DNA of 64,000 nucleotides from Apoderus coryli. Taxonomy: Eukaryota; Arthropoda; Insecta; Coleoptera; Attelabidae. The position numbers were made by a program, and so were the translations under genes. Shown one piece after another: positions 15,901-60,910 of this stretch. Within the stretch, counting starts at the first letter, position 1. The number at the start of each line of letters is the position of its first letter. The notes under the pieces were generated by a model, which did no database searches, had not been told where the DNA came from, and saw nothing but the letters and a program-made list of their open reading frames with translations. Location of the stretch: the NCBI GenBank assembly GCA_911728435.2, contig OU452198.1, positions 31,277,902 to 31,341,901 of the forward strand. Reading direction: 5' to 3'.

Positions 15901-18900
15901 CTAAATAAAATCTTAGAAGATATGCATTAATATGACCAAAATTCATAAGCTGAATAATTACTTGTTCCAATAAAATTATATAAATGGCACAATGTCACTT
16001 GAAAAATGTATATCGATGATTTTTCTATAAATGTATAAAAAACTTACCTGACACTATACTAAATTTTTCGCTTAAAATTTGTATTTGGCCACGTGCGTTC
16101 CCGCCGAGAACATAAGTAATACTAACTTTTGGAATGATGCACGCGGTGAAGAAAACTTACGGCTTTGGCGCCAAACTTAAAAATGGCGGCGTTTATCTCA
16201 TGGTGAGCTTGTCTCAAGGTGGCCCACTCTCCCCTAGGTTGTGGCGATTCACCTGTACATGGTTTGTAAAACCAGATTCGTTCGAAAACAATACACTATA
16301 GAAAAAGTTTCTGTTTAATCGAATTTGCTATCGTGCCCACTGACAAAATCTGACTCGATTCTCAAAATCATCACCATGAAGTTCTTGCTGATGCAAAGCA
16401 ATGTGATACGGGTGAAATTTATGCCGCTTTAATATCCTAAGAATGCTTGATTTAGAAATTCTAGTGTCTTGAGAAATTCTTCGACAAGAAACATGCGGAT
16501 TCACAGCAATAGCCGCCAATACTGCGATTTCATTATTTTCACCACTGACAGTAGCTCGTCGACTTCGTTTATTCGGCTGTACATTTCCGGTTTCTCTAAA
16601 ATCCTTCACAACACGGTAAAATGTAGCTCGGGTGATAGGATTTCTTTCTGGAATACGTTGCATATACAATGCTACGGGATTATCGACATTTCTGTGACAT
16701 TCTCCATAGAGCAATATCATCTCAACCTTTTGTGCTACAGAAACTACAAAAACTAACTTATTGTTTATTGTCTCTCACAAGTGTAAAGATATTATGAATG
16801 AGTTCGTTTTTTCGGCTGTACCTACTTTTCCGGTCTGTCTAAAATCCTTCACCGCACGGTAAAATGTAGCGCGAGTTATAGGATTTCTTTCTGGAAAACG
16901 TTGCATATACAATGCTACACTACAAAAAATTGCTGTAAATCCTGGTGATTCTACATAATAAATCAATATCGACTATGTAATATTTACCATAACATCCAAG
17001 TAATTTATAAGTTACAGATACTTAGATGTATTATTACATCATAAAAGTACATGTCCACAAAAGTACACAGTTTTACATATTTTTCCATTTGTATGTGTAA
17101 TAGAATGTGATTGTATGTAAAAAGATGTAATTTTATGTGAGAGAATGTAGAAATACGCTGAATTACATCAAACCACGTAAAATCTCCTGTTTCACCGTTT
17201 AAAATTGAAGACGTCCAGAAGCCAGCAGGGGTCGCATCCTCGCATGCTTTATTTTTAATCTTGCCGTTTGTGGTTGTGTATATAGGAGTTAGGGGTATAC
17301 GAGATTTATAATAATAATAATAATGCCTAATAGATTTAATACATGTACTGGGTTTTGATGTGCCGCGTAAAACGTAATAAGCAGTTTTTGATTTGGAAAC
17401 TTCAGAATAAGGTAAGTACGTAACAATAGAGATAATATTTTTGGTAAGGGCCATTTTACCATTATCAGGAAATATTGTATACACCAACATTCTCACAGAA
17501 AGCAGCAACAATATTCGATGTCTATTTGGAAGTTTCAAAATGGTGTTTAAAACGTATGGTGCCTTTTATCCACATTTAACGATCTCACAACTGCTTTGGT
17601 AAGGAAGATACCAAACCTCTTTTGCAAAATCTGACTAATTTTAAGTGCGCATTAACAAACTATTTATTTATGACCTATTTTGTACATGATTACAAGAAAC
17701 ATTCCTTTTTACTAGTTGCTGTATTTTTACAATATTATAAGCTAACCGTAAAGAATAGGTATTTTGTTACTGTTTATATAAGTACGTCCACATACGTACT
17801 TATACACTGTTTATTACTATGATGTGTATTGTTTTTCTTTTTAATATAGCTGTAGTTTAAATTTTACTACTTGTGTTTTTATCTAAATATAATATGCTAA
17901 AGATGGTTATTTTTCAGATAAATTTCTGCCCAACGTTTACGGTACATCCTGTATCAGGGCGATTCAAATTTTAATAGGGAAAATTCACCAGCTACTTATA
18001 TGGTTATGAACATGAAGAAAAGGACCAAGGTCGGTAAATGCTTCGTATTCAACATAGCTATACAAGGTGTTAAAAGTGAAGCTCTGATGATATTTTATTG
18101 CTCCTAAACGTTTAGAGATAAATTAAAGACAAGACAGAGTAAAAAGTTTAGTAGCTGTCCTAAATTTAGTTAATGTAATGTAATGTTAAGATAAGAAAGC
18201 ATAATCGGAGCTTCACTTTTAACAGCATGTATGTTGAATACGACCCATTTTCCCACCTATGTCTATATTATGCTTTTCATCATATTTTGAGCCATATAAC
18301 TCGCAGGTGAAGATTCCACATTAAAAGTTAAATCACCCTGTATAGGTATAACTTGGAGTATCTTGTATTTATACGTGTTCAACTACGTAATTGTAAACAT
18401 ATACAGAATGGGAATTTTACATTAAATTTCATGCACAAATAATTAAAAATACATAAAGGTTGTATTAATGGTTACATAACTGAACATGTAAATTTACCTA
18501 TCAAGACATTACTTTACATGTCCATAATGGGATTCTTACATTAAATTTCATTCACAAATAATTAAAACTACATAATCCTTGTATTAATTATTAAACAACT
18601 GAATGTGTAAATTTACCTATCAATACATGCTTTTATTTTGCATGTATAACAATGTAATTTTTACATGGTAAACCAGGGCATAATATTACCTATGATTTTT
18701 TTGGTAATTTTACACAAATTTTAGTTGTAGTGTACACTACAACTAAAATTTGTGTAAAATTACCAAAAAAATCATAGGTAGTGTACACTACAACTAAAAT
18801 TTGTGTAAAATTACCAAAAAAATCATAGGTAATATTATGCCCTGGTTTACCATGTAAAAATTACATTGTTATACATGCAAAATAAAAGCATGTATTGATA

Positions 18901-21900
18901 GGTAAATTTACACATTCAGTTGTTTAATAATTAATACAAGGATTATGTAGTTTTAATTATTTGTGAATGAAATTTAATGTAAGAATCCCATTATGGACAT
19001 GTAAAGTAATGTCTTGATAGGTAAATTTACATGTTCAGTTATGTAACCATTAATACAACCTTTATGTATTTTTAATTATTTGTGCATGAAATTTAATGTA
19101 AAATTCCCATTCTGTATATGTTTACAATTACGTAGTTGAACACGTATAAATACAAGATACTCCAAGTTATACCTATACAGGGTGATTTAACTTTTAATGT
19201 GGAATCTTCACCTGCGAGTTATATGGCTCAAAATATGATGAAAAGCATAATATAGACATAGGTGGGAAAATGGGTCGTATTCAACATACATGCTGTTAAA
19301 AGTGAAGCTCCGATTATGCTTTCTTATCTTAACATTACATTACATTAACTAAATTTAGGACAGCTACTAAACTTTTTACTCTGTCTTGTCTTTAATTTAT
19401 CTCTAAACGTTTAGGAGCAATAAAATATCATCAGAGCTTCACTTTTAACACCTTGTATAGCTATGTTGAATACGAAGCATTTACCGACCTTGGTCCTTTT
19501 CTTCATGTTCATAACCATATAAGTAGCTGGTGAATTTTCCCTATTAAAATTTGAATCGCCCTGATACAGGATGTACCGTAAACGTTGGGCAGAAATTTAT
19601 CTGAAAAATAACCATCTTTAGCATATTATATTTAGATAAAAACACAAGTAGTAAAATTTAAACTACAGCTATATTAAAAAGAAAAACAATACACATCATA
19701 GTAATAAACAGTGTATAAGTACGTATGTGGACGTACTTATATAAACAGTAACAAAATACCTATTCTTTACGGTTAGCTTATAATATTGTAAAAATACAGC
19801 AACTAGTAAAAAGGAATGTTTCTTGTAATCATGTACAAAATAGGTCATAAATAAATAGTTTGTTAATGCGCACTTAAAATTAGTCAGATTTTGCAAAAGA
19901 GGTTTGGTATCTTCCTTACCAAAGCAGTTGTGAGATCGTTAAATGTGGATAAAAGGCACCATACGTTTTAAACACCATTTTGAAACTTCCAAATAGACAT
20001 CGAATATTGTTGCTGCTTTCTGTGAGAATGTTGGTGTATACAATATTTCCTGATAATGGTAAAATGGCCCTTACCAAAAATATTATCTCTATTGTTACGT
20101 ACTTACCTTATTCTGAAGTTTCCAAATCAAAAACTGCTTATTACGTTTTACGCGGCACATCAAAACCCAGTACATGTATTAAATCTATTAGGCATTATTA
20201 TTATTATTATAAATCTCGTATACCCCTAACTCCTATATACACAACCACAAACGGCAAGATTAAAAATAAAGCATGCGAGGATGCGACCCCTGCTGGCTTC
20301 TGGACGTCTTCAATTTTAAACGGTGAAACAGGAGATTTTACGTGGTTTGATGTAATTCAGCGTATTTCTACATTCTCTCACATAAAATTACATCTTTTTA
20401 CATACAATCACATTCTATTACACATACAAATGGAAAAATATGTAAAACTGTGTACTTTTGTGGACATGTACTTTTATGATGTAATAATACATCTAAGTAT
20501 CTGTAACTTATAAATTACTTGGATGTTATGGTAAATATTACATAGTCGATATTGATTTATTATGTAGAATCACCAGGATTTACAGCAATTTTTTGTAGTG
20601 TACGGCATTATCGACATTTTTGTGACATTCTCCATAGAGCAATATAATCTCAACCTTTCATGCTACATAAAAATGTTTCATATTTTCTCAAAACTAACTT
20701 ATTGTTTATTGTCACTCACAAGTGTAAAGATATTATGAATGATTTCTTTGCTATAAATATGCAAAAATGGTTACCAGATGAAAAATTTACTACTTTTTAG
20801 CTCTCCATATCATATACAGGGTGGTCCAACGAAAAGTTTGCACCTAGCTTTTCTCTTTTTTTTGTAGTCGAATGCGAAAATGCTCGGACACGTCGATTTT
20901 GCTTTTGAGGGGGACACATTTTAAACATATTTTTCGATCTGCGCCTTTAACCCCCTAGCGGGGGTGAGTAACAACCCTAAAATTTTAAATGGAAAGAGGG
21001 GTCTAATGACATATCATTTGAAAGGACACAAAATTGTCTTTCTAATGATACCCTATTTGTCGAATTTTACTAAAACAGTTAATACGAAAACGACTTTAAA
21101 GACATTAAGCCGATAATTTTGGTATTAATGAGAAATACAAATAAGTTTTAATTATTACGACTGAAAACAACTACAATCATTTCTAAATTATTTACTTTGA
21201 AGAAAAACGGGATTTCAAAAACACTATCTTATTTATCAGAACTAAATTCCTCACTAATCGTTTGCGTTTTTTGTTGAAATAAAAACTGCAGATACGTGTA
21301 GGAAAAGAATTTACACCGTTTATTTTAGTCTTTTCATTGATTCAGTTTGGTTGCTTCTCAAGTTATTTTACTTTTACCGTACAAAATGATTTATTCCATT
21401 CTAGAACGAGTTGAAATTGTTAAACTTGATACACACCTGATATGCTACAAAATGTTAGAAATAGATTTGAACAAAATCTGTATTATTGTATGGAATCAAA
21501 TGGGTCACATTTTCAACATTTGTTAATGTAACGTTTTAATAAATCAATTTAACAGCTTGTTTACTTTTTTTACAAAGCAATGTTAAAACTAACAAACATT
21601 GGAATGTACTAACGATTGCAGGTGTTTTCACTCGCAATAATTAAAACTTATTTGTATTTCTCATTAATACCAAAATTATCGGCTTAATGTCTTTAAAGTC
21701 GTTTTCGTATTAACTGTTTTAGTAAAATTCGACAAATAGGGTATCATTAGAAAGACAATTTTGTGTCCTTTCAAATGATATGTCATTAGACCCCTCTTTC
21801 CATTTAAAATTTTAGGGTTGTTACTCACCCCCGCTAGGGGGTTAAAGGCGCAGATCGAAAAATATGTTTAAAATGTGTCCCCCTCAAAAGCAAAATCGAC

Positions 21901-24900: not shown

Positions 24901-27900
24901 TGAGTATTTGTTATGGTGATCCATTGCTGAAGAAAAGAATATGTGAGGCAATAGTACAAGAGAAGAAGACTATGTTGGAGTTTAAGTTTAATCCGAAGTT
25001 GACGACGAGTATAAGAAGAACTGATGAATCAAAAGCTGCGACTCACGGACAAAATGTTGTTAAGGATGTCAGGGTGAGAGATATGCCTAGGAATAATAAG
25101 CCGACGGGAGAGAATTTGTTGAAGAAGTGTGACAAAAATCAGAAAATGGTTAGATCGAAGACAAGACAGCATCGTTTCAATCCGTACAGGTTGTAATTGG
25201 TGAGTAGAATATAGCTTTTGTATATATTAAAATTAATTGTAAATAATAATTTAGCTTAGGTTTGTACATATTAGATTATTTAGTACCTAGTGTTGTAGTT
25301 TGTAAAAATATAGATTTAGATGTATATTATTGTATCTTATTTCTGTGTATATTTTGTAATAAGGTTTATAAGACAGTAAATATGAAACCATGATTTACTT
25401 TCACTGGTTGTAGGATTTTTCTTGATGAAAATCTTCCCGGTGAACATAAGTGAAAAATCAAGTATAACATGTGGTTGAACATATCGATAATAGGATATTA
25501 CCATATGCCAGAAGGAAAGTGTGTAGGCCGTTTAGTTTTTTTAATAAGTGTTGGGGATTACACAAAAATTAAAATATACTCTTGAAAAATGTTTTTTTAG
25601 TTAAAAGTTAGTTTTTTTGATTTTTGTTTTAATGGTCCCACGAGGCCAGGCGATATCTCAAACAGCCGGGTTGGCCGCATGAATCCAAAGTGTCACCAGC
25701 ACGATATCCTACCACACTAAAAATAAAATGTCGATAACAACTTCCCGAGAAGAAGTAATTCACTCCAGGTATAAAATACTAATTATATCGATGACCAAAT
25801 ACCAAATACTATGCAAAAATATAATAAAAAAAACAAACATATCTCTCTATAGGTTTACCAAATAGACCATAAATATTTAACTAAAAATGTTCCAATACAA
25901 ACGCCACAAAAGTAAGAACTTAACTCAAATTTAACTTCAAAATAAATGTAACTTATTAGTGTGGGGAATTTGGGCACGTCCTGTCTCCTAACTCATTCAC
26001 TCTAACATTATTAACTAAATAATCCTACCTATAGCAATCCCAATGTCCTTTTGGTATATCGCTGGTTGCGACCAAACCGAAATGTTTCTTACTTACTTTA
26101 AATAAATTAATATGTTCGTATAGGAATATAATAATAATAGTAACTGTAACAAGTAAGTTTTCGATGAAAATCAAATTGTCGAGAAACATGGTCAATTTTT
26201 TTAAATAATTTTAATTTTTTCTACTAATTAAATGAAATTTATTTAAACGTTAGAACAAGTAACAAAACCAAACTAACTTCATAATTGCAAAATTAATGCT
26301 GCGTGCATTGAAGCTAACGGCGGACATTTTCAACATTTAATAAATTTCTATTTTTACGGTTTGGAGAATTAAAAAAAAAACTTTTTTTTATAAGGATAAG
26401 TCTTCATTTTTTTTAAATTTTGCAATTATGAAGTTAACGTTTAATTAGTAGAAAAAGTTAAATTTATTTCAACAAATTTTCAACAGGTGATTTTACACCA
26501 TGCTATATGGCTTTCCTAGCCATACTGATGAGAACTGTCCGAGTTCGAAAGCAGATAGAATATCCATCCCCAATGTGTAACTCCATTGTTACACGCAACA
26601 GAAAATTGTTTTGGGCATGCGTTTTCTAGTACACTAACTGTTAATATCCAGTCAGTCAAAGTTTTGAGCTTTCTGTTGGAGAAGACATAAATCTACTGTT
26701 TGGACTTCGATTCGTCTCTTCGGGTGCGGAATACCTCAAGACAGCGTTATTTTTCAATTATACAGGGTGTCCGGAAAAAGGAGGTCAATCCGTTAACCAC
26801 AGATTCCTTGAGCAAAAATAATATGAGTTTTAAGATGTCATTTTTCATTTTAGCCCTCCATGTTCGATATACAGGGCGTCAAAGTTGAAAATTTAAAACC
26901 AATATTTTTAAATAATTCTAGTATTTATTGAGATATTGGATTCAAATTTAGTGTGTTGCTTCAGCATAAAGAGCTACTTCTTTCCAAAAAACAACAGAAA
27001 AAACAATGTCTTAATAGCCAAAATACGAGATGTTCAGTACCTATTGACCCTCCCAAGTTTTTATTACGTACGCCAATGACTTTTAAACTAATTATTTATA
27101 AGTTACTATGTATTTGTGATTATTTGTTAACTCTTATAAAATTTGGATAAAATCATTTGTTTTTGAGATATTTGGAAAAGTATTGGCTCTTGTTTGATGC
27201 CTCGGCGGCTCTGGCTATTCTTGAAATATCAAGCAACTCTGGTGTTACCTTGGATACCTACTTAAGCAATGTTTTATTGTTGTCAAATTAGTTATCACAA
27301 TTTGACAGTAGTTTAAGGTTTAAAAGTTAATATTTTTAATTATCGGTAATTTTATAAGTAAACACAACGAAAATGGATCGTAGACGAAACAATTTTATAT
27401 GTTTTTCGGAAATGATGGATATTGTCTTAATCATGGGTAAGATTTAAAGACATTTGATTGATTATAATCAGTTAAATTTTATTGTTGTTTATTTACTAGG
27501 AAAATGTAACTCTAACGCTAGTTTAGCCGCTAGGCGGAACGCAGAAAAGTTCCCTAATTGAATTCATCCAAGACGAAGGTATTTTTCAAATTTAGTTAGG
27601 CGACTAAGGCACAGTGGAAGTTTTAGGGAAGACCGTAAAGGGAACTGCGGTCGACCCCGTCTAATTCAACCGGAAAAGGAGGAGAGTATTTTAACAAGCA
27701 TCGAGGAAACACCAAATATTAGTACCAGAGTTCTTGCCCGACAGGTTGAAAATATTGGGAAATCTGAAGTACACCAGATTTTAAAAAGATAGCAGCTTTA
27801 CCCCTACCACATTCAAGAAGTACAATCTCTGCTGCCTCAAGACCTTGAGATGAGATCTAGGCTATGTAGGTGGATATGCGAAATGCATGACAGAGATATA

Positions 27901-30900
27901 CACTTCATCAAAAATATTTTATTTACGGACGAAGCTACCTTTACTAGAAACGTGGTCACAAATATTCATAATATACATATCTGGGCAGAAGAAAATTCTC
28001 ATGCCGTAGTAGAGACACATCATCAAGTAAACTTTAAAGTCAACGTGTGGGTTGGTGTCGTGAATAATTTCTTTTTGGGTCCTATAATTTTACCAGGGAA
28101 TTTGACTGGTGATTCATTTTTAGCATTTCTTCAAAACATACTGCCCGATTTACTTGACGATTTGCCTCTCTTAATTAGACAAAATATTTGGTTTCAACTT
28201 GATGGTGCATCAGCGCATTTTGCTAGGAATGTAAGGAGATACTTACATGAAAACTTTTCCCAACGGCGAGGCCAAGATGCTCCTGTTAAATAGCCACCCC
28301 GATCTCCAGATCTTACTCACTTGGACTATTCAGTCTGGGGTTGTATGAAAGACTTTGTTTATAAGGTTCCGATTTTGAGTAAAAATCATTTAATAGAGAG
28401 AATCTTACAAGCTGGGTAAGACTTTAGGTTGAAGCCTCATATTTTTCAAAGACTAAGATTTTCTTTACTAAAAAGAGCTCGCATATGCATTGAAAAGAAT
28501 GGGGGTCATATCGAGCAATTTCTTTAGAATGGTAGTTTATCTAATGTTTATTTAGTTACTTTTTCATGTTTTTAAAATAATATGTTTAAATAATTAATAT
28601 TTGACTATGATGCTTCAAATTAAGTTAAAAATAATAAACAATTTCGTGTTCGTAGTGTTTAGTTTTATTACCTTTTCGAAAACTTTACTTAATTTGATGC
28701 ACAATAATGGTAATTTGAGTTAAATATGCTTGATTTAGTAGTGAAAATACCGTGAGCCGCGTAGACAACAAGAGCCAATACTTTTCAAAATATCTCAAAA
28801 ACAAATGATTTTATCCAAATTTTATAACAGTTAAAAAATAATCAAAAATACATAGTAACCTATAAAAACTTAGTTCAAAAGTCATTGGCTTAGGTGATAA
28901 AAACTTGGGGGGGTCAATAGGTACTGATCATCCCGTATTTCGGCTATTAAGGAATTGTTTTTTGTGTTCTTTTTTGGAAAGAAGTACCTCTTTATGCCGA
29001 AGCAACAAACTCAATTTGAATCCAATATCTCAATAAATACTAGTCTTATTTAAAAATATTGGTTTTAAATTTTCAACTTTGACGCCCTGTATATCGAACA
29101 TGGAGGGCTAAAATGAAAAATGACATCTTAAAACTCATATTATTTTTGCCCAAGGAATCTGTGGTTAATGGATTGACCTCCTTTTTCCGGACACCCGTAT
29201 ATAAAAAAAATAAAAATTAAATATTTGGTATGAGGAATTATTAACTTTTACTTCCAAATGACGCTCAGTAGGTACGTTCGTTAGTCTGTTATAAATGTTG
29301 CTATTTTTAACAAAATATGGAATATCTTTCTATCTCAGAAAAAGTTTTGATATTACCTGTGGTTTTGCAGATAAAAATGCTATATCCCATGAATTCTATT
29401 ACTGTGTTGCGAAGAAGTTTACGTGAACGTATTTTACTAAATTCCTGATGAAGACAGGTGGTCTTGTCGAAACGTTGAAACACAGAAATAAATAATGGCA
29501 TTTAAATAATTATCTAAAATCAAATAATCAGTCGATGATTTTTTCAATTGTTGAACATCAGTTCCAAGAACAAAAAACAGAGAAATTAACCCAAATTATT
29601 ATCGGAATCACAAAAATTTATTAACAAAAGTTATTTGTTTTTTATGTAGAATCCGATTCGGTAATGAAAAATATATATTTCCATTAAGAAAAAACGAATT
29701 GACCTTGAGATAACCTTGAAACAGTTGACAAACTCGAAAATGGGTGCCACCATTGTTTTTCCCTCACAATAGCAAACAATTTTTATTTGAACTTTTTTTC
29801 CGAAAAATGTGCTGTTTTTAAGATATCAGGCTGTCTCAAGATAAATGGACCACCCGGTATATTATCTGACTGGTTGCATCGTTCGTCTCTCGGTGTTTTA
29901 CAAATATGCAGAGTACGCTCATCAAGTGATCGCTCAATAAGAATTTGCTATTAACATATGAAATGCCTTGATTTTGATCAGTACCTGGTAGAAGCCCCAT
30001 TTCCAACTGATAATATCTAAACTATCATTTTTTTTTACAAGTTTACTGTCTTAAAACTCTGATTGTCAACAAACTGCATCGATTTCTAAGCAGTCGCGCA
30101 TTTCGCCTTAACAAAAAATGTCAAAATGTATTAGTGATGAGTCGTGCCAAAAGCAAAGGTCGTTTCTAAAATTATAAAAGGCGACCTTCGTATTAGTTTG
30201 AATGATTAACATACCCGATATGAACCAACATATACGTAAGAAACCGCCAACACTCATAACGTTTATAAGGATCATAGATAAAGAGATTCGCCGTGATTCC
30301 CGTTCCATACAATGTGGAATTTTTCTCAGTAAATTCATCAATCACGAAACAAGCGATTTCAATCAGAGATATCAACAGCATACCGATTGGTGGTGGGCAG
30401 CAGCTGTATTGATCTTCAAACGCACCATCTTGCTGATCTACAGCATCTTCAGTTACCGAAATACCTCTCGCTAGCTTAAACCGTTGTTTCTTGTATCTTG
30501 GTACCACGAATCTCACATAACTGAAAACATAGGTACTTTAATTTGCGAAATAGAGCTTAAAGAGTGAACTTCATTTACTTTTGGACGTATTCTCCAAATA
30601 ACTGCCTGAACTTTTTGTTTTGCACCATATTCATAAATTCATCTAAATCAATTTTATTGTCTCTGTTAACATCTGATGCTATAAAAACTTTTTTGACAAT
30701 CTTCTTTGGTACTTCATCGTCACTTTTTAACATTTCTCTTAATTCTTCTAGTTCTATGTAACCGTCATTGTCATGATCGTACTAAATGGAAATTCAAAGG
30801 AAATTAAGAAATAATTCTTTCAAATTAATAATCTTTAATTATAATTTAAATTACGAGTTGATTGTTACATAATGTACCAGGACTTTAAGTTATGTTGGAA

Positions 30901-47712: not shown

Positions 47713-48350
47713 TATTAGTGGAGATTCCTATGTCTGCACTGTGATTATATTTGAATCCCGCTCATAATTTTTTACAGATAACTTAAAGTATTACTAAGAA
47801 GATTACAGTTTATCTTAATATTACAATTTATTTATTGTAGTTGGAAATAAAATTACATCCTAAGTAGGAAATAATTCCCGAAACAAAAATAATAATAATA
47901 ATAACAAATAATAACACTAATAATAAAAGAACTACAAACAGACCTAGGAAAACAATTTGGAAAAGATGAAGTCCTAAGCCTGGCAGAAATACTTATACAT
48001 ATACTTTATATATACCTAATACATTACAAATCTTAATAATAAACAAATAGTACATCAAAATTAAATAGTATTGAATTAAGTTAATTAGGTGCGAATGAAA
48101 TTCCCTTTCTCTCTCTCACATGAATCTATCAACACAGAAGAATCAATCAGTTTTATGGGAGGTTATTCCGAAGCAAGAGGTTTTTGTTTTCTTTTCTGAA
48201 TTTAATTGGAAGAAACGAATTGAGGCAGTCAGGAAGTTGATTTAAATGCCAGTAAACGTTATATGTAAACATAAAAGGATTTCATGTCCGTAAATATAAT
48301 AAATGAAAAATAATTTAATGGCAAAGCGGACTGTTTTCATTATTTGGCAT
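47713..48350. other. No gene seen; AAT microsatellite
   Basis: An (AAT)n-like tract sits at about 47888-47909. No coding region supported. Confidence 0.5.
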
Positions 48351-48354
48351 TAAA

Positions 48355-48835
48355 CATCGACGGCAGAACGCTTGGAGACCACCGTCCGAGCATTGCTGAA
48401 ACCCAAATATTTGGGAGATGCTGGAAGAAGGATAAAATGGTCTCCTGCTAGCGTTTTGTGTTCATACTATTTTTATTTATATTTATTTCTATACGACTGG
48501 TTTTACCTATACATTGCGTTTGTTCGGCCTCTGCATGGTATAGGATATGCATTACTATGTATATGTAGATGATACGTGTTTACATGTGTCTACTATTGTG
48601 TATCCTATTGTGCTTAAATGCAGGCCGATATTTGTAGATGGGCAACGACTATGGTACTCTGACGAGCTCATAACAAGAGCGAAACGAATTCGTCAGTATC
48701 TGTCGACCCATGCCTCGGTCTGGTTCTATTGAATTAGACTGGGGCCGTACTAAATTAAACAAAATTCCTTGTGTAGGTAAAACCAGCATTTTAGTCCGCT
48801 TTGCCATTAAATTATTTTTCATTTGTTATATGTAA
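48355..48835. repeat. Repeat S, longer copy
   Basis: Carries the text shared with 45764-45990 plus about 240 bp to its left (GACGGCAGAACGCTTGGAGA onward). The short ORFs across it are not conserved between the copies. The class is unknown. Confidence 0.55.
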
Positions 48836-58934: not shown

Positions 58935-60440
58935 TATTCAAAAGTTCGACCAAAGATTTAATTGTATTATTCAAAAAACTATATTTCATATTTCCTTATA
59001 TTCTACTTAAAATTTAAAAATCTTTTGATACTTTCGCGTTTTTGATGGAAATGTTGAAGCCAATATTTTCCCCATTAAGGATTCTCCAGTAAATTAGCAG
59101 CCCCCAACATGCAAATTTTTTACTAATTTAACATCAGCAGTAGCACGATTTTCTCACGTGCCAGCGATTCATATACAGAAAAGTACGTAGCCTTTTTACC
59201 AGGAAATTTGTATTTAATGGTCCTTTTTCCAGATAAAACGGACCCACTTAAACGCAATGTGTGGCCCGACACTTAAAGGTTCCTTATTGTTTACTTTCTT
59301 GACGACTTTCGCGACCTGCTAGACGTCCACGTCAACGAAAAGAAATGGGGGATTATGAAATATAAGTGGTGGTCAAAGATACTTAGCGGATCTCATTTCA
59401 GCAGGTCGTGTCTTTGATTTTGGCTTTCTTTTTCCTCGGATTTAAAGGAGAAGCGAACGAATGAAACAAAATCTTTATCCAGAGTTAGTTCGGCAATTAT
59501 TAAATTAACGTACCTACCCTGTTAAAAATTTGTCTGTAATACGCCAACAGCTTCTGCGTCCGCACATTTTGGTCGTTTTCTCGTCCAGTAGGCATTCTTA
59601 ACTCGTCAAATACCTACCCACTTATACTTCTGGTTTACCGAAACATTTTTTAATTAATATTGTTGTCAAACCATTAAACAACAGTCAACATCTAGATGGT
59701 TCAGTACCGGTAAGAAATAATACTACTACTACTAAATAACATCGATTATTACTAAACGATTCTAATGTTTATTAGGTGTATCTATGATGTTATTGGAAAT
59801 GAAATGATAAGATAACACTAATCGATAAATGAATCAAAAAGGATTACCTATAGTTATTTATCAACGGAATTATAAAGATCTTAATAATCGAGGGCAAAAT
59901 TTCATTCCCGAGGGGCAGAAATGTTTGTAATAATTATTCTTTCCGGTATATGTATTTGCATTGTTGTTAAACTATGCTAACAATGTCTCAATTTTATATT
60001 AAAAAGGGTAGGTAAGTAGGTAGGTTCAAAATGAGTGAGTCTACGCCGGACCCTACACTGCGACCACCGAGTGTGGCTCATACCTATTCATATTTCACCT
60101 AGCAGCTCAATCTTCTTAATAGAGTCGCTGGTAGAAGGGATTAAAAAGGATAATTAATAAGGGTATTGAACCCTCCCAGCATTTTCAAACAACCCAAAGT
60201 ATTTTTGAACTGACATTACATATCAAAGAAACCGGTTGTGTCGCCCCAAAACTTTCCCGACAAGATATAAATTATTAACAACTTAAAACATAGAGCCTTA
60301 TCTTTGTCTGATGAATAGTTTCATGAAAAAAATTTAACACTTACCTTTTGAAAGTTTTGAGAGAATAGTTATCCAGAAAAACTTAAAAATACTACTTCAA
60401 ACCTGAAACCAATGAAAATAGTTTGCCTAATTCAAATCAA
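58935..60440. other. Long stretch without recognised genes
   Basis: No domain-bearing ORF on either strand. GCGACCTGCTAGACG (59310) and TTTCAGCAGGTCGTG (59398) form a small inverted repeat. A (TAC)n tract sits at 59721-59735. Otherwise featureless AT-rich DNA. Confidence 0.5.
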
Positions 60441-60463
60441 ATAATAACAAAAGATATTTAAAA

Positions 60464-60910
60464 ATGCCCTATGTCTGTGGTTTATCTGAAAAATTATGTA
60501 AAGTATTTATACTAACACTAATATCAAAGTTGCTTTTAAGAACGAAAACACGACTAAGAAATAATTTAGTAAACAAAAATCAGAAGTTTGAGAGCAACGT
60601 TGTTTATAAAATACCCTGTAAATACTGTAATAAAGTCTATATAGGACAAACTTCTCGGTATTTAGGAACAAGGATAAAAGAGCATCAAGTGAACATCAGA
60701 CCCCAAAACTTAGTTAATGCTCCAAAAAAATCTGGTCTAACTGAACTTGTTAATGCGCGGTTAAATGACATTGAATAAGAAAAGACAGAAATTCTTGGTG
60801 GACAGCAAAACTACAAAAAAAGACTTTTGAAAGAAATGATAAATATAAAAAGCATCAAAATAACGTAAACAAACAAGTTGACACCCAAAATTTGAGCTCT
60901 GCATGTATAA
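60464..60910 (+). pseudogene. Penelope-like element, C-terminal GIY-YIG endonuclease remnant
   Basis: LSEKLCKVFILTLISKLLLR is followed by NVVYKIPCKYCNKVYIGQTS and RYLGTRIKEHQ. The CxxC zinc pair and the VYIGQT..R motif are the hallmark of the Penelope GIY-YIG domain. A stop after NARLNDIE breaks the frame, then KTEILGGQQNYKKRLLKEMI and degenerate tail text continue the usual C-terminus. No RT is nearby. The only protein evidence in the window for the element class that I assign to the CTGATGA-type hairpins. Confidence 0.85.

What the first reader, a model, noticed from the sequence alone, without database searches (positions are those of the whole stretch)
26501..26553. Complete hammerhead ribozyme inside a rhomboid intron
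Seen directly: 4 bp stem III, NUH site CUA, 7 bp stem I with 5 nt loop, CTGATGA, 5 bp stem II with 5 nt loop, GAA and the closing strand, all without mismatch. Known: this is the full hammerhead consensus, in the topology where stems I and II carry the loops. Inference: self-cleaving RNA, possibly the mark of a small circular retrozyme-like repeat or SINE. It may cut the rhomboid antisense transcript or an F-box read-through transcript, since it lies on the plus strand, downstream of the F-box gene. I know of no description of it at this locus.
Basis: partly seen in the sequence, partly recalled or inferred. Interest (0 to 1): 0.88.

Follow-up and report, generated by a model that had tools for sequence, protein, structure and literature searches.

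The report
Two-sided hammerhead jumping element, insect genome

Summary
Confirmed: window 26501-26553 (+) is a complete type III hammerhead without mismatch, in a truncated copy (26492-26760) of a multicopy element, "W" (45 matches). Penelope-like elements (PLEs) here end likewise. (2) W has a second type III hammerhead on the opposite strand: 15 of 20 loci by strict descriptor, 13 of 20 on both strands; Rfam 24.2 bits, E 0.001 on 69 bases. An unrelated family, A, has both polarities, though no single A locus is strict on both. Two type I families show one polarity. The window copy's minus ribozyme is broken, and the window shows no clear duplication. Best reading: a retroviroid-like circular RNA mobilised by PLE reverse transcriptase. 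Circles, cleavage, the PLE partner and RNA-RNA copying are inferred. Rfam support for the window ribozyme alone is weak (12.3 bits, E 3).

The parts
26492..26760 (+). W-family element copy, 5'-truncated just upstream of the hammerhead, 3' end near internal RT start site 1 (unit position about 277); no clear target duplication of its own
   Evidence: similarity to other genomic copies starts at query 43-45 (window 26492-26494) and ends near 26760; other copies are 79-92% identical; longest shared flank word 6 bp
26501..26553 (+). complete type III hammerhead ribozyme (plus polarity)
26505..26506 (+). expected self-cleavage position (after H17 = A)
   Evidence: from the sequence and established hammerhead numbering (recalled); cleavage not tested
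26696..26744 (-). remnant of the opposite-polarity type III hammerhead; in this copy both conserved core boxes are altered, so it is predicted dead; strict-descriptor versions exist in 15 of 20 other loci
26554..26695 (+). spacer between the two ribozymes, shared with other W copies and more variable than the plus ribozyme
30193..30537 (-). exon-like ORF of a rhomboid-like paralog upstream of the supposed intron that holds the element
   Evidence: motif YECWRF at 30258; no Pfam hit by itself
60431..60778 (+). decayed Penelope-like element GIY-YIG endonuclease piece (same genome, candidate machinery)
   Evidence: PF01541 E 9.2e-4, 19.9 bits, below cut-off 22.6; 150 scored relatives of 2555 candidates

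Best explanation
The window holds a decayed, truncated copy of a small non-autonomous retroelement (W) that works through a circular RNA of about 603 nt. Shown from sequence: W units occur in exact tandem in three loci; 13 of 20 loci hold an intact-looking type III hammerhead on both strands; most inserts examined are head-to-head, with one end at internal site 1 and the other at internal site 2, and about half of the places have 11-13-bp target duplications; Penelope-like elements in the same genome make inserts of the same kind. Inferred: multimeric transcripts of either strand cut themselves at the hammerheads, a host ligase closes the monomers, a Penelope-like protein nicks both target strands and starts reverse transcription at two internal sites, runs round the circle (giving tandem units), and the two cDNAs are joined head-to-head. 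The both-strand ribozymes further suggest that the RNA can also be copied RNA-to-RNA by a symmetric rolling circle, as in Avsunviroidae; that last step is the least secure.
For: Plus hammerhead passes the strict descriptor in 17 of 20 other loci, minus in 15 of 20, both in 13 of 20 (it checks four pairs each of stems I and III and three of stem II); 0 such hits in 20 Mb of random sequence of W composition. Minus ribozyme of L003 hits RF00008 at 24.2 bits, E 0.0011 on a chosen 69-base stretch; subfamilies differ by a matched U-A to C-G change in its stem I. Family A, with no similarity to W in the element (one weak 39-bp match elsewhere in L031), has plus hits of 36-38 bits in the own genome and a minus hit of 31.9 bits, E 7.3e-6 on 69 bases. 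Plus hammerhead divergence 0.029 against 0.067-0.068 in the rest. Exact 603-bp spacing in L009, L010, L011. Target duplications of 11-13 bp in 10 of 21 places against 0 of 420 mismatched flank pairs at 11 or more, 2 at 10. One end per site in 14 of 16 composite loci. PLE1: 7 of 7 loci with both ends anchored have one short and one tailed end; shared flanks of 11-14 bp in 6 of 7. Within-locus divergence 0.012 mean over 27 pairs, between loci 0.070. Anolis PLE protein starts RT at two internal sites and cuts both strands (PMC11167929, parts 1-2 of 4 read).
Against: No RNA data; circularity, cleavage and RNA-RNA copying are untested. The plus ribozyme scores badly in Rfam (12.3 bits), has a 4-bp stem III and an NUA site, and the predicted circle pairs 23 of its 52 nt with the minus-ribozyme region. 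Minus-ribozyme divergence (0.061) is hardly below the background (0.067) over 20 rows, partly through the matched stem change and the dead window copy. In family A no single locus is strict on both strands: L030 and L031 plus, L036 minus. RF00008 at E <= 10 also rings in 7 of 14 control genomes, and none of its 18 own-genome matches is a W locus I know (68 of 63124 candidates scored). No similarity between W and 30 fetched PLE loci, so the partner is unknown. Eleven of 21 places lack an 11-bp duplication by the automatic test, the window among them. Units of L026 and L015 differ as much as those of different loci (0.097, 0.062), against a single RNA template there. Tandem identity could also come from multimeric linear RNA. 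Loci were picked by similarity to the window copy.
Confidence: 0.6

Rival explanations
1. Ordinary metazoan non-LTR retrozyme: circular RNA from genomic tandem repeats, moved by PLE machinery, with the minus-strand hammerhead a functionless by-product (for example an old inverted duplication made by head-to-head insertion).
For: Genomic tandem repeats, GC 42%, no LTR pair seen, coexistence with PLEs; PLE inserts make inverted copies, which could put a ribozyme on both strands; minus-ribozyme divergence is near background.
Against: The two ribozymes have quite different stems; the minus one passes the strict descriptor in 15 of 20 loci and shows a matched stem change; a second unrelated family has ribozyme cores on both strands in 4 of 5 loci, while type I families B (8 loci) and T1 do not. 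Known metazoan retrozymes carry type I ribozymes and units of about 170-400 nt (PMC7229834, parts 1-4 of 6 read).
Confidence: 0.27
2. Pieces of a Penelope-like element (its pseudo-LTR), not a separate element.
For: Same insert anatomy; a loose hammerhead-like core pattern occurs in 25 of 30 fetched PLE loci.
Against: My two stricter type I descriptors found nothing in those 30 PLE loci; W is type III; no similarity of W to them; W units repeat every 603 bp with no RT or EN frame seen.
Confidence: 0.06
3. DNA transposon or foldback element with inverted repeats.
For: Inverted arms and target duplications.
Against: Arms end at two different unit positions, the junction between arms varies from locus to locus with -4 to +8 bp between arms in 12 of 13 loci and +28 in one, and 603-bp tandems occur in direct orientation.
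Confidence: 0.03
4. Chance hammerhead-like match in an ordinary repeat.
For: Weak Rfam score of the window ribozyme.
Against: 0 strict hits in 19.2 Mb and in 20 Mb of random sequence; the ribozyme is less divergent than the rest across copies; opposite-strand ribozyme too.
Confidence: 0.03

Closest known systems
Carnation small viroid-like RNA (retroviroid-like element)
   Same: small circular RNA with hammerheads in both polarity strands and homologous DNA in tandem repeats (PMC8865084, passages)
   Different: 275 nt, in a plant, DNA fused to pararetrovirus or host sequence; W is 603 bp, chromosomal, multicopy, in an insect or other arthropod genome, with PLE-type ends; no W RNA has been shown
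Family Avsunviroidae viroids (ELVd, PLMVd)
   Same: hammerheads on both strands in one central region of a highly paired circle (PMC8865084 passages, PMC11888127 part 1; for W a prediction)
   Different: infectious plant RNAs with no DNA stage; W known here only as DNA
Plant LTR retrozymes
   Same: type III hammerhead, 600-800-nt circular RNA intermediates (PMC7229834 part 1)
   Different: LTR, PBS and PPT; the minus polarity of the Jatropha retrozyme did not self-cleave (PMC4918200, passages); W shows no LTR pair and has a minus hammerhead
Metazoan non-LTR retrozymes
   Same: genomic tandem repeats with hammerhead, GC under 50%, coexistence with PLEs, proposed PLE mobilisation (PMC7229834 parts 1-4, PMC7761336 section 8)
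   Different: type I hammerhead and about 170-400-nt units; W is type III, both polarities, 603 bp
Penelope-like elements (Poseidon_Ac; Adineta Pen families)
   Same: head-to-head inverted copies, an optional 'tail' at one end, two internal RT start sites, short target duplications (PMC11167929 parts 1-2; PMC3846280 section 6 and passages)
   Different: PLEs encode RT and GIY-YIG endonuclease and carry minimal type I hammerheads; the W start sites lie about 103 nt apart, not 30-40
Delta-like agents of termite and toad with type III hammerheads, and related motifs in termite and fly genomes
   Same: type III hammerheads in animals, genomic and antigenomic in the RNA agents (PMC7936874, passages)
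   Different: atypical long helices with pseudoknot, delta-like genome; W has a 6-7-bp stem I and no conserved ORF

Membership tests
Type III hammerhead ribozyme | conserved core, three helices, stem III open, stems I and II capped | tested here: met
Type III hammerhead ribozyme | Rfam RF00008 gathering score 48.5 | tested here: not met
   12.3 bits window plus, 24.2 W minus, 31.9 family A minus, 36-38 family A plus; no own-genome match passes the cut-off
Type III hammerhead ribozyme | self-cleavage | not testable with these tools
   needs in vitro transcription
Metazoan non-LTR retrozyme | tandem repeats with a type I hammerhead | tested here: not met
   tandem yes, but type III
Metazoan non-LTR retrozyme | circular RNA intermediate | not testable with these tools
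   no RNA data
Plant LTR retrozyme | LTR pair flanking the element | tested here: not met
   inserts end inside the unit at two sites, head-to-head
Plant LTR retrozyme | primer binding site and polypurine tract | not tested
   not searched for
Penelope-like element (member) | RT plus GIY-YIG frame | tested here: not met
   603-bp unit; longest ATG frames in the L010 unit are 195 aa (+) and 124 aa (-); the 195-aa frame is broken in other subfamilies
Works like a PLE insert | head-to-head copies, two fixed internal start sites, short target duplications | tested here: met
   duplications clear in 10 of 21 places automatically, three more by eye
Retroviroid-like element | hammerheads in both polarities | tested here: met
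   13 of 20 loci strict, Rfam; not in the window copy, whose minus ribozyme is broken
Retroviroid-like element | homologous DNA as tandem repeats | tested here: met
   exact 603-bp repeats in L009, L010, L011
Retroviroid-like element | circular RNA of both strands in the host | not testable with these tools
   no RNA data
Viroid (Avsunviroidae) | autonomous RNA-RNA replication and infectivity | not testable with these tools
   criteria from PMC11888127 part 1 of 3
Viroid (Avsunviroidae) | no protein-coding potential | tested here: inconclusive
   195-aa near-full-circle frame in the L010/L011 subfamily, broken elsewhere
SINE | tRNA-derived head | tested here: not met
   ARAGORN 0 genes in L010, L011, L002, L006; 5S or 7SL heads and Pol III boxes not tested

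The most novel reading that the evidence does not exclude
W and the unrelated family A are chromosomally integrated copies of viroid-like circular RNAs of an animal: RNAs that replicate, or once replicated, by symmetric rolling circle with a type III hammerhead on each strand, and that were captured into the genome again and again by Penelope-like reverse transcriptase. They would be animal counterparts of the carnation retroviroid-like element and a living link between viroids and retrozymes.
Probability: 0.35. Interest if true: 0.95.

Novelty: new variant of a known kind. Interest (0 to 1): 0.85.

Why it matters
The literature I read names PLEs as a 'strong candidate' for moving animal retrozymes without showing it (PMC7229834 part 4) and leaves open whether viroids came from retrozymes or the reverse (PMC8865084 passages). 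Here a hammerhead element carries the PLE insertion signature at sequence level, in a genome with PLEs in long open frames, and two unrelated animal families carry type III hammerheads in both polarities. Each claim can be tested by RNA-seq and simple transcription assays in one animal. It also gives a host test: copies inside introns might lose the ribozyme that lies on the sense strand of the gene, as the single case in the window has.

Tried and rejected
SINE origin: no tRNA by ARAGORN in four loci. Coding role: a 195-aa frame runs almost round the 603-nt circle in the L010/L011 subfamily, but L009 has a further stop and other loci are shifted or stopped; set aside as not conserved. Similarity of W to PLE loci: none in 30 loci at E <= 0.01. 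PLE ribozymes: two type I descriptors found none in 30 PLE loci; only a looser core pattern did, 25 of 30. Viral contigs: two exact ribozyme patterns, 0 matches. Rfam on seven loci at once (28.8 kb) gave no hammerhead at E <= 10, nor did 601 window bases; only short stretches chosen around a seen ribozyme did. Joint alignments of all ribozyme types (A1, A2) shift W-plus against the others, so no pair counts were taken from them. Genome-wide count of the W ribozyme by pattern, W-unit search and copies of the type I window element: asked for, never answered; the empty site of the window copy was not searched. No random control was run for type I hits.

Counting notes: L019-L025 repeat L002-L008 and were not counted; L001 is the window itself; that leaves 20 loci (L002-L018, L026-L028). 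L017 was left out of the divergence tables. Of 16 composite W loci, 14 have one end at each site (L003, L006, L007, L009-L016, L018, L026, L027), L017 is ambiguous and L005 has a shortened left arm; L002, L004, L008 and L028 are not composite. For L007, L015 and L027 the second end or the duplication was read by eye; L009 has an imperfect one. PLE1 loci L049 and L050 are 99.85% alike, so seven two-ended loci are six independent ones, and the two 14-bp values among 42 mismatched control pairs are those two against each other (their printed flanks are the same). L060's long end, missed by the anchor, shows and would be an eighth; L057's minus end leaves the anchor earlier and fits neither site.

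Full report
What was claimed and what is there. The sequence shows exactly that: stem III TGCT/AGCA, A26505 before the expected cut, a 7-bp stem I with 5-nt loop, CTGATGA, a 5-bp stem II with 5-nt loop, GAA. A strict descriptor finds this one type III hit in the window on both strands; 150 random sequences of 128 kb gave none, and 2 under a looser descriptor. Rfam is lukewarm: nothing at gathering score, no hammerhead at E <= 10 over 601 bases, and RF00008 at 12.3 bits, E 3, over 81 bases, as the only family listed.

The element. The genome of the window (428 Mb, 129 contigs) holds many copies: 45 matches from 40 scored of 1266 first-look candidates. I worked with 20 loci besides the window. 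Similarity to the window begins at 26492-26494, about 12 bases before the cut, and ends near 26760. Three loci (L009, L010, L011) show exact 603-bp spacing, and the 603-nt unit of L010 is strongly self-paired (z -6.3 on 20 shuffles).

Insertion anatomy. In 16 of 20 loci copies lie head-to-head; I saw none tail-to-tail among them. In 14 of these 16 one outer end stops near unit position 277 and the other near 380 (exceptions L017 ambiguous, L005 shortened). The inner junction varies, with -4 to +8 bp between arms in 12 of 13 loci and +28 in one. Flanks share 11-13 bp in 10 of 21 places, against 0 of 420 mismatched pairs at 11 or more and 2 at 10; reading the ends by eye adds L007, L015 and L027. 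The window copy shows no clear duplication (6 bp). Units within a locus differ by 0.012 on average, between loci by 0.070; of 9 loci with two or more rows, 7 stay at or below 0.035 while L026 (0.097) and L015 (0.062) do not. In most inserts, then, the units seem to come from one RNA.

Who moves it. The window has a GIY-YIG endonuclease piece at 60431-60778 (below the family cut-off). Used as query it gives 150 scored matches of 2555 candidates, 20 of them in open frames of 700 aa or more, up to 848, a number of them in minus-then-plus pairs. PLE1 loci (my name) end at two sites about 30 nt apart; 7 of 7 loci with both ends anchored (6 independent) have one short and one long end, L060 would be an eighth and L057 is irregular. 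Flanks share 11-14 bp in 6 of 7; of 42 mismatched pairs two reach 14, both between the near-identical L049 and L050, and the rest stay at 9 or less. A loose hammerhead-like core pattern occurs in 25 of 30 PLE loci, although my stricter type I descriptors found none there. A purified Anolis PLE starts reverse transcription at two internal sites and cuts both strands (PMC11167929, parts 1-2 of 4), and head-to-head copies with an optional tail are described in Adineta (PMC3846280, section 6 and passages). W has the same signature with a wider gap between sites. No sequence shared between W and these 30 PLE loci was found.

Two polarities. Scanning both strands of the loci shows a second type III hammerhead on the minus strand of W: 15 of 20 loci by strict descriptor, plus strand 17 of 20, both 13 of 20. 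Random sequence of W composition gave 0 in 20 Mb. Rfam gives RF00008 24.2 bits, E 0.0011 on 69 bases of L003. Two subfamilies differ by a matched U-A to C-G change in its stem I. Of 20 rows (window plus 19 loci), 17 keep the minus core boxes; the window, L002 and L027 do not. The divergence of the minus ribozyme, 0.061, is close to the 0.067 of the spacer, unlike that of the plus ribozyme, 0.029. A family A with no similarity to W in the element, found through RF00008 in the own genome (36-38 bits for three copies; the same search rings at E <= 10 in 7 of 14 control genomes), has a minus ribozyme of 31.9 bits, E 7.3e-6 on 69 bases of L036, and ribozyme cores on both strands in 4 of 5 loci; by strict descriptor L030 and L031 pass on the plus strand and L036 on the minus, none on both. 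Two type I families, B (8 loci) and the second window element T1, show the ribozyme in one polarity (the two strands of L034 are inverted copies of the same motif). In the predicted circle 23 of 52 nt of the plus ribozyme pair into the minus-ribozyme region, the kind of blocking reported for plant retrozymes and viroids and not for most metazoan retrozymes (PMC7229834 part 4).

Reading. The best-supported account is a retroviroid-like element: transcripts of tandem copies cut themselves, are closed to circles, and are copied into new sites by PLE machinery. Sequence supports the ribozymes, the unit, the insertion sites and the duplications. Cleavage, circles, the PLE partner and RNA-RNA copying are inferred. 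The both-strand design is the reason to prefer 'retroviroid-like' over 'retrozyme': the Jatropha retrozyme showed no self-cleavage in the minus polarity (PMC4918200, passages), and metazoan ones are described with type I ribozymes of about 170-400 nt (PMC7229834, parts 1-4 of 6). A simpler origin for the second ribozyme, an inverted duplication made by head-to-head insertion, is possible, but would have to have happened twice and been kept.

At this locus. The + strand ribozyme is antisense to the rhomboid-like frames (minus strand), so it cannot cut their pre-mRNA. The minus-strand ribozyme could, and it is the one broken here. One case proves nothing, but the rule is testable.

Print status. 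My paper searches (open-licence full texts only, listings of the top hits) showed me no description of animal genomic elements with type III hammerheads on both strands. They did show delta-like agents with type III hammerheads and related motifs in termite and fly genomes (PMC7936874, passages) and a remark, given as in preparation, on elements with type III hammerheads in insects (PMC7761336, passages). Subscription papers are missing, so priority is not settled. The host is probably an insect: among the few named relatives of a rhomboid exon the best is Acanthoscelides obtectus, 72% identity; the genome itself is unnamed.

Noticed in passing
window 48300-48828 (+), ribozyme about 48650-48707: A second, type I hammerhead (4-bp stem II, stem III with palindromic tetraloop, GUC site) in an element whose ends look inverted over 32-33 bp by eye. 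Rfam RF02275 20.1 bits, E 0.0066 on 161 bases, below its cut-off of 52. One polarity only.
   Followed up: partly
L032-L035, L037, L038, L040, L041: Family B: type I hammerhead with an 8-nt nearly self-complementary stem III, a design suited to dimers, in tandem and inverted copies.
   Followed up: partly
L010, L011 (unit 603 bp): In one W subfamily a 195-aa frame runs almost the whole way round the circle because 603 is a multiple of three; one stop in 201 codons. Broken in other subfamilies.
   Followed up: partly
window 60431-60778 (+): Decayed Penelope-like GIY-YIG endonuclease piece; relatives with long open frames elsewhere in the genome.
   Followed up: yes
window 17005-17565 (-) and 19953-20513 (+): Identical 186-aa frames in opposite orientation: arms of a large inverted repeat.
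   Followed up: no
window 30193-30537, 13078, 53228, 53877 (all -): Rhomboid-like frames suggest two paralogs in the same orientation, each with separate N-terminal and GASGG exons: perhaps a tandem gene duplication with long introns.
   Followed up: no
window 26194-26478: Inverted repeat arms (39 nt at 90%, 21 nt at 100%) directly to the left of the W copy, possibly a separate small hairpin element.
   Followed up: no
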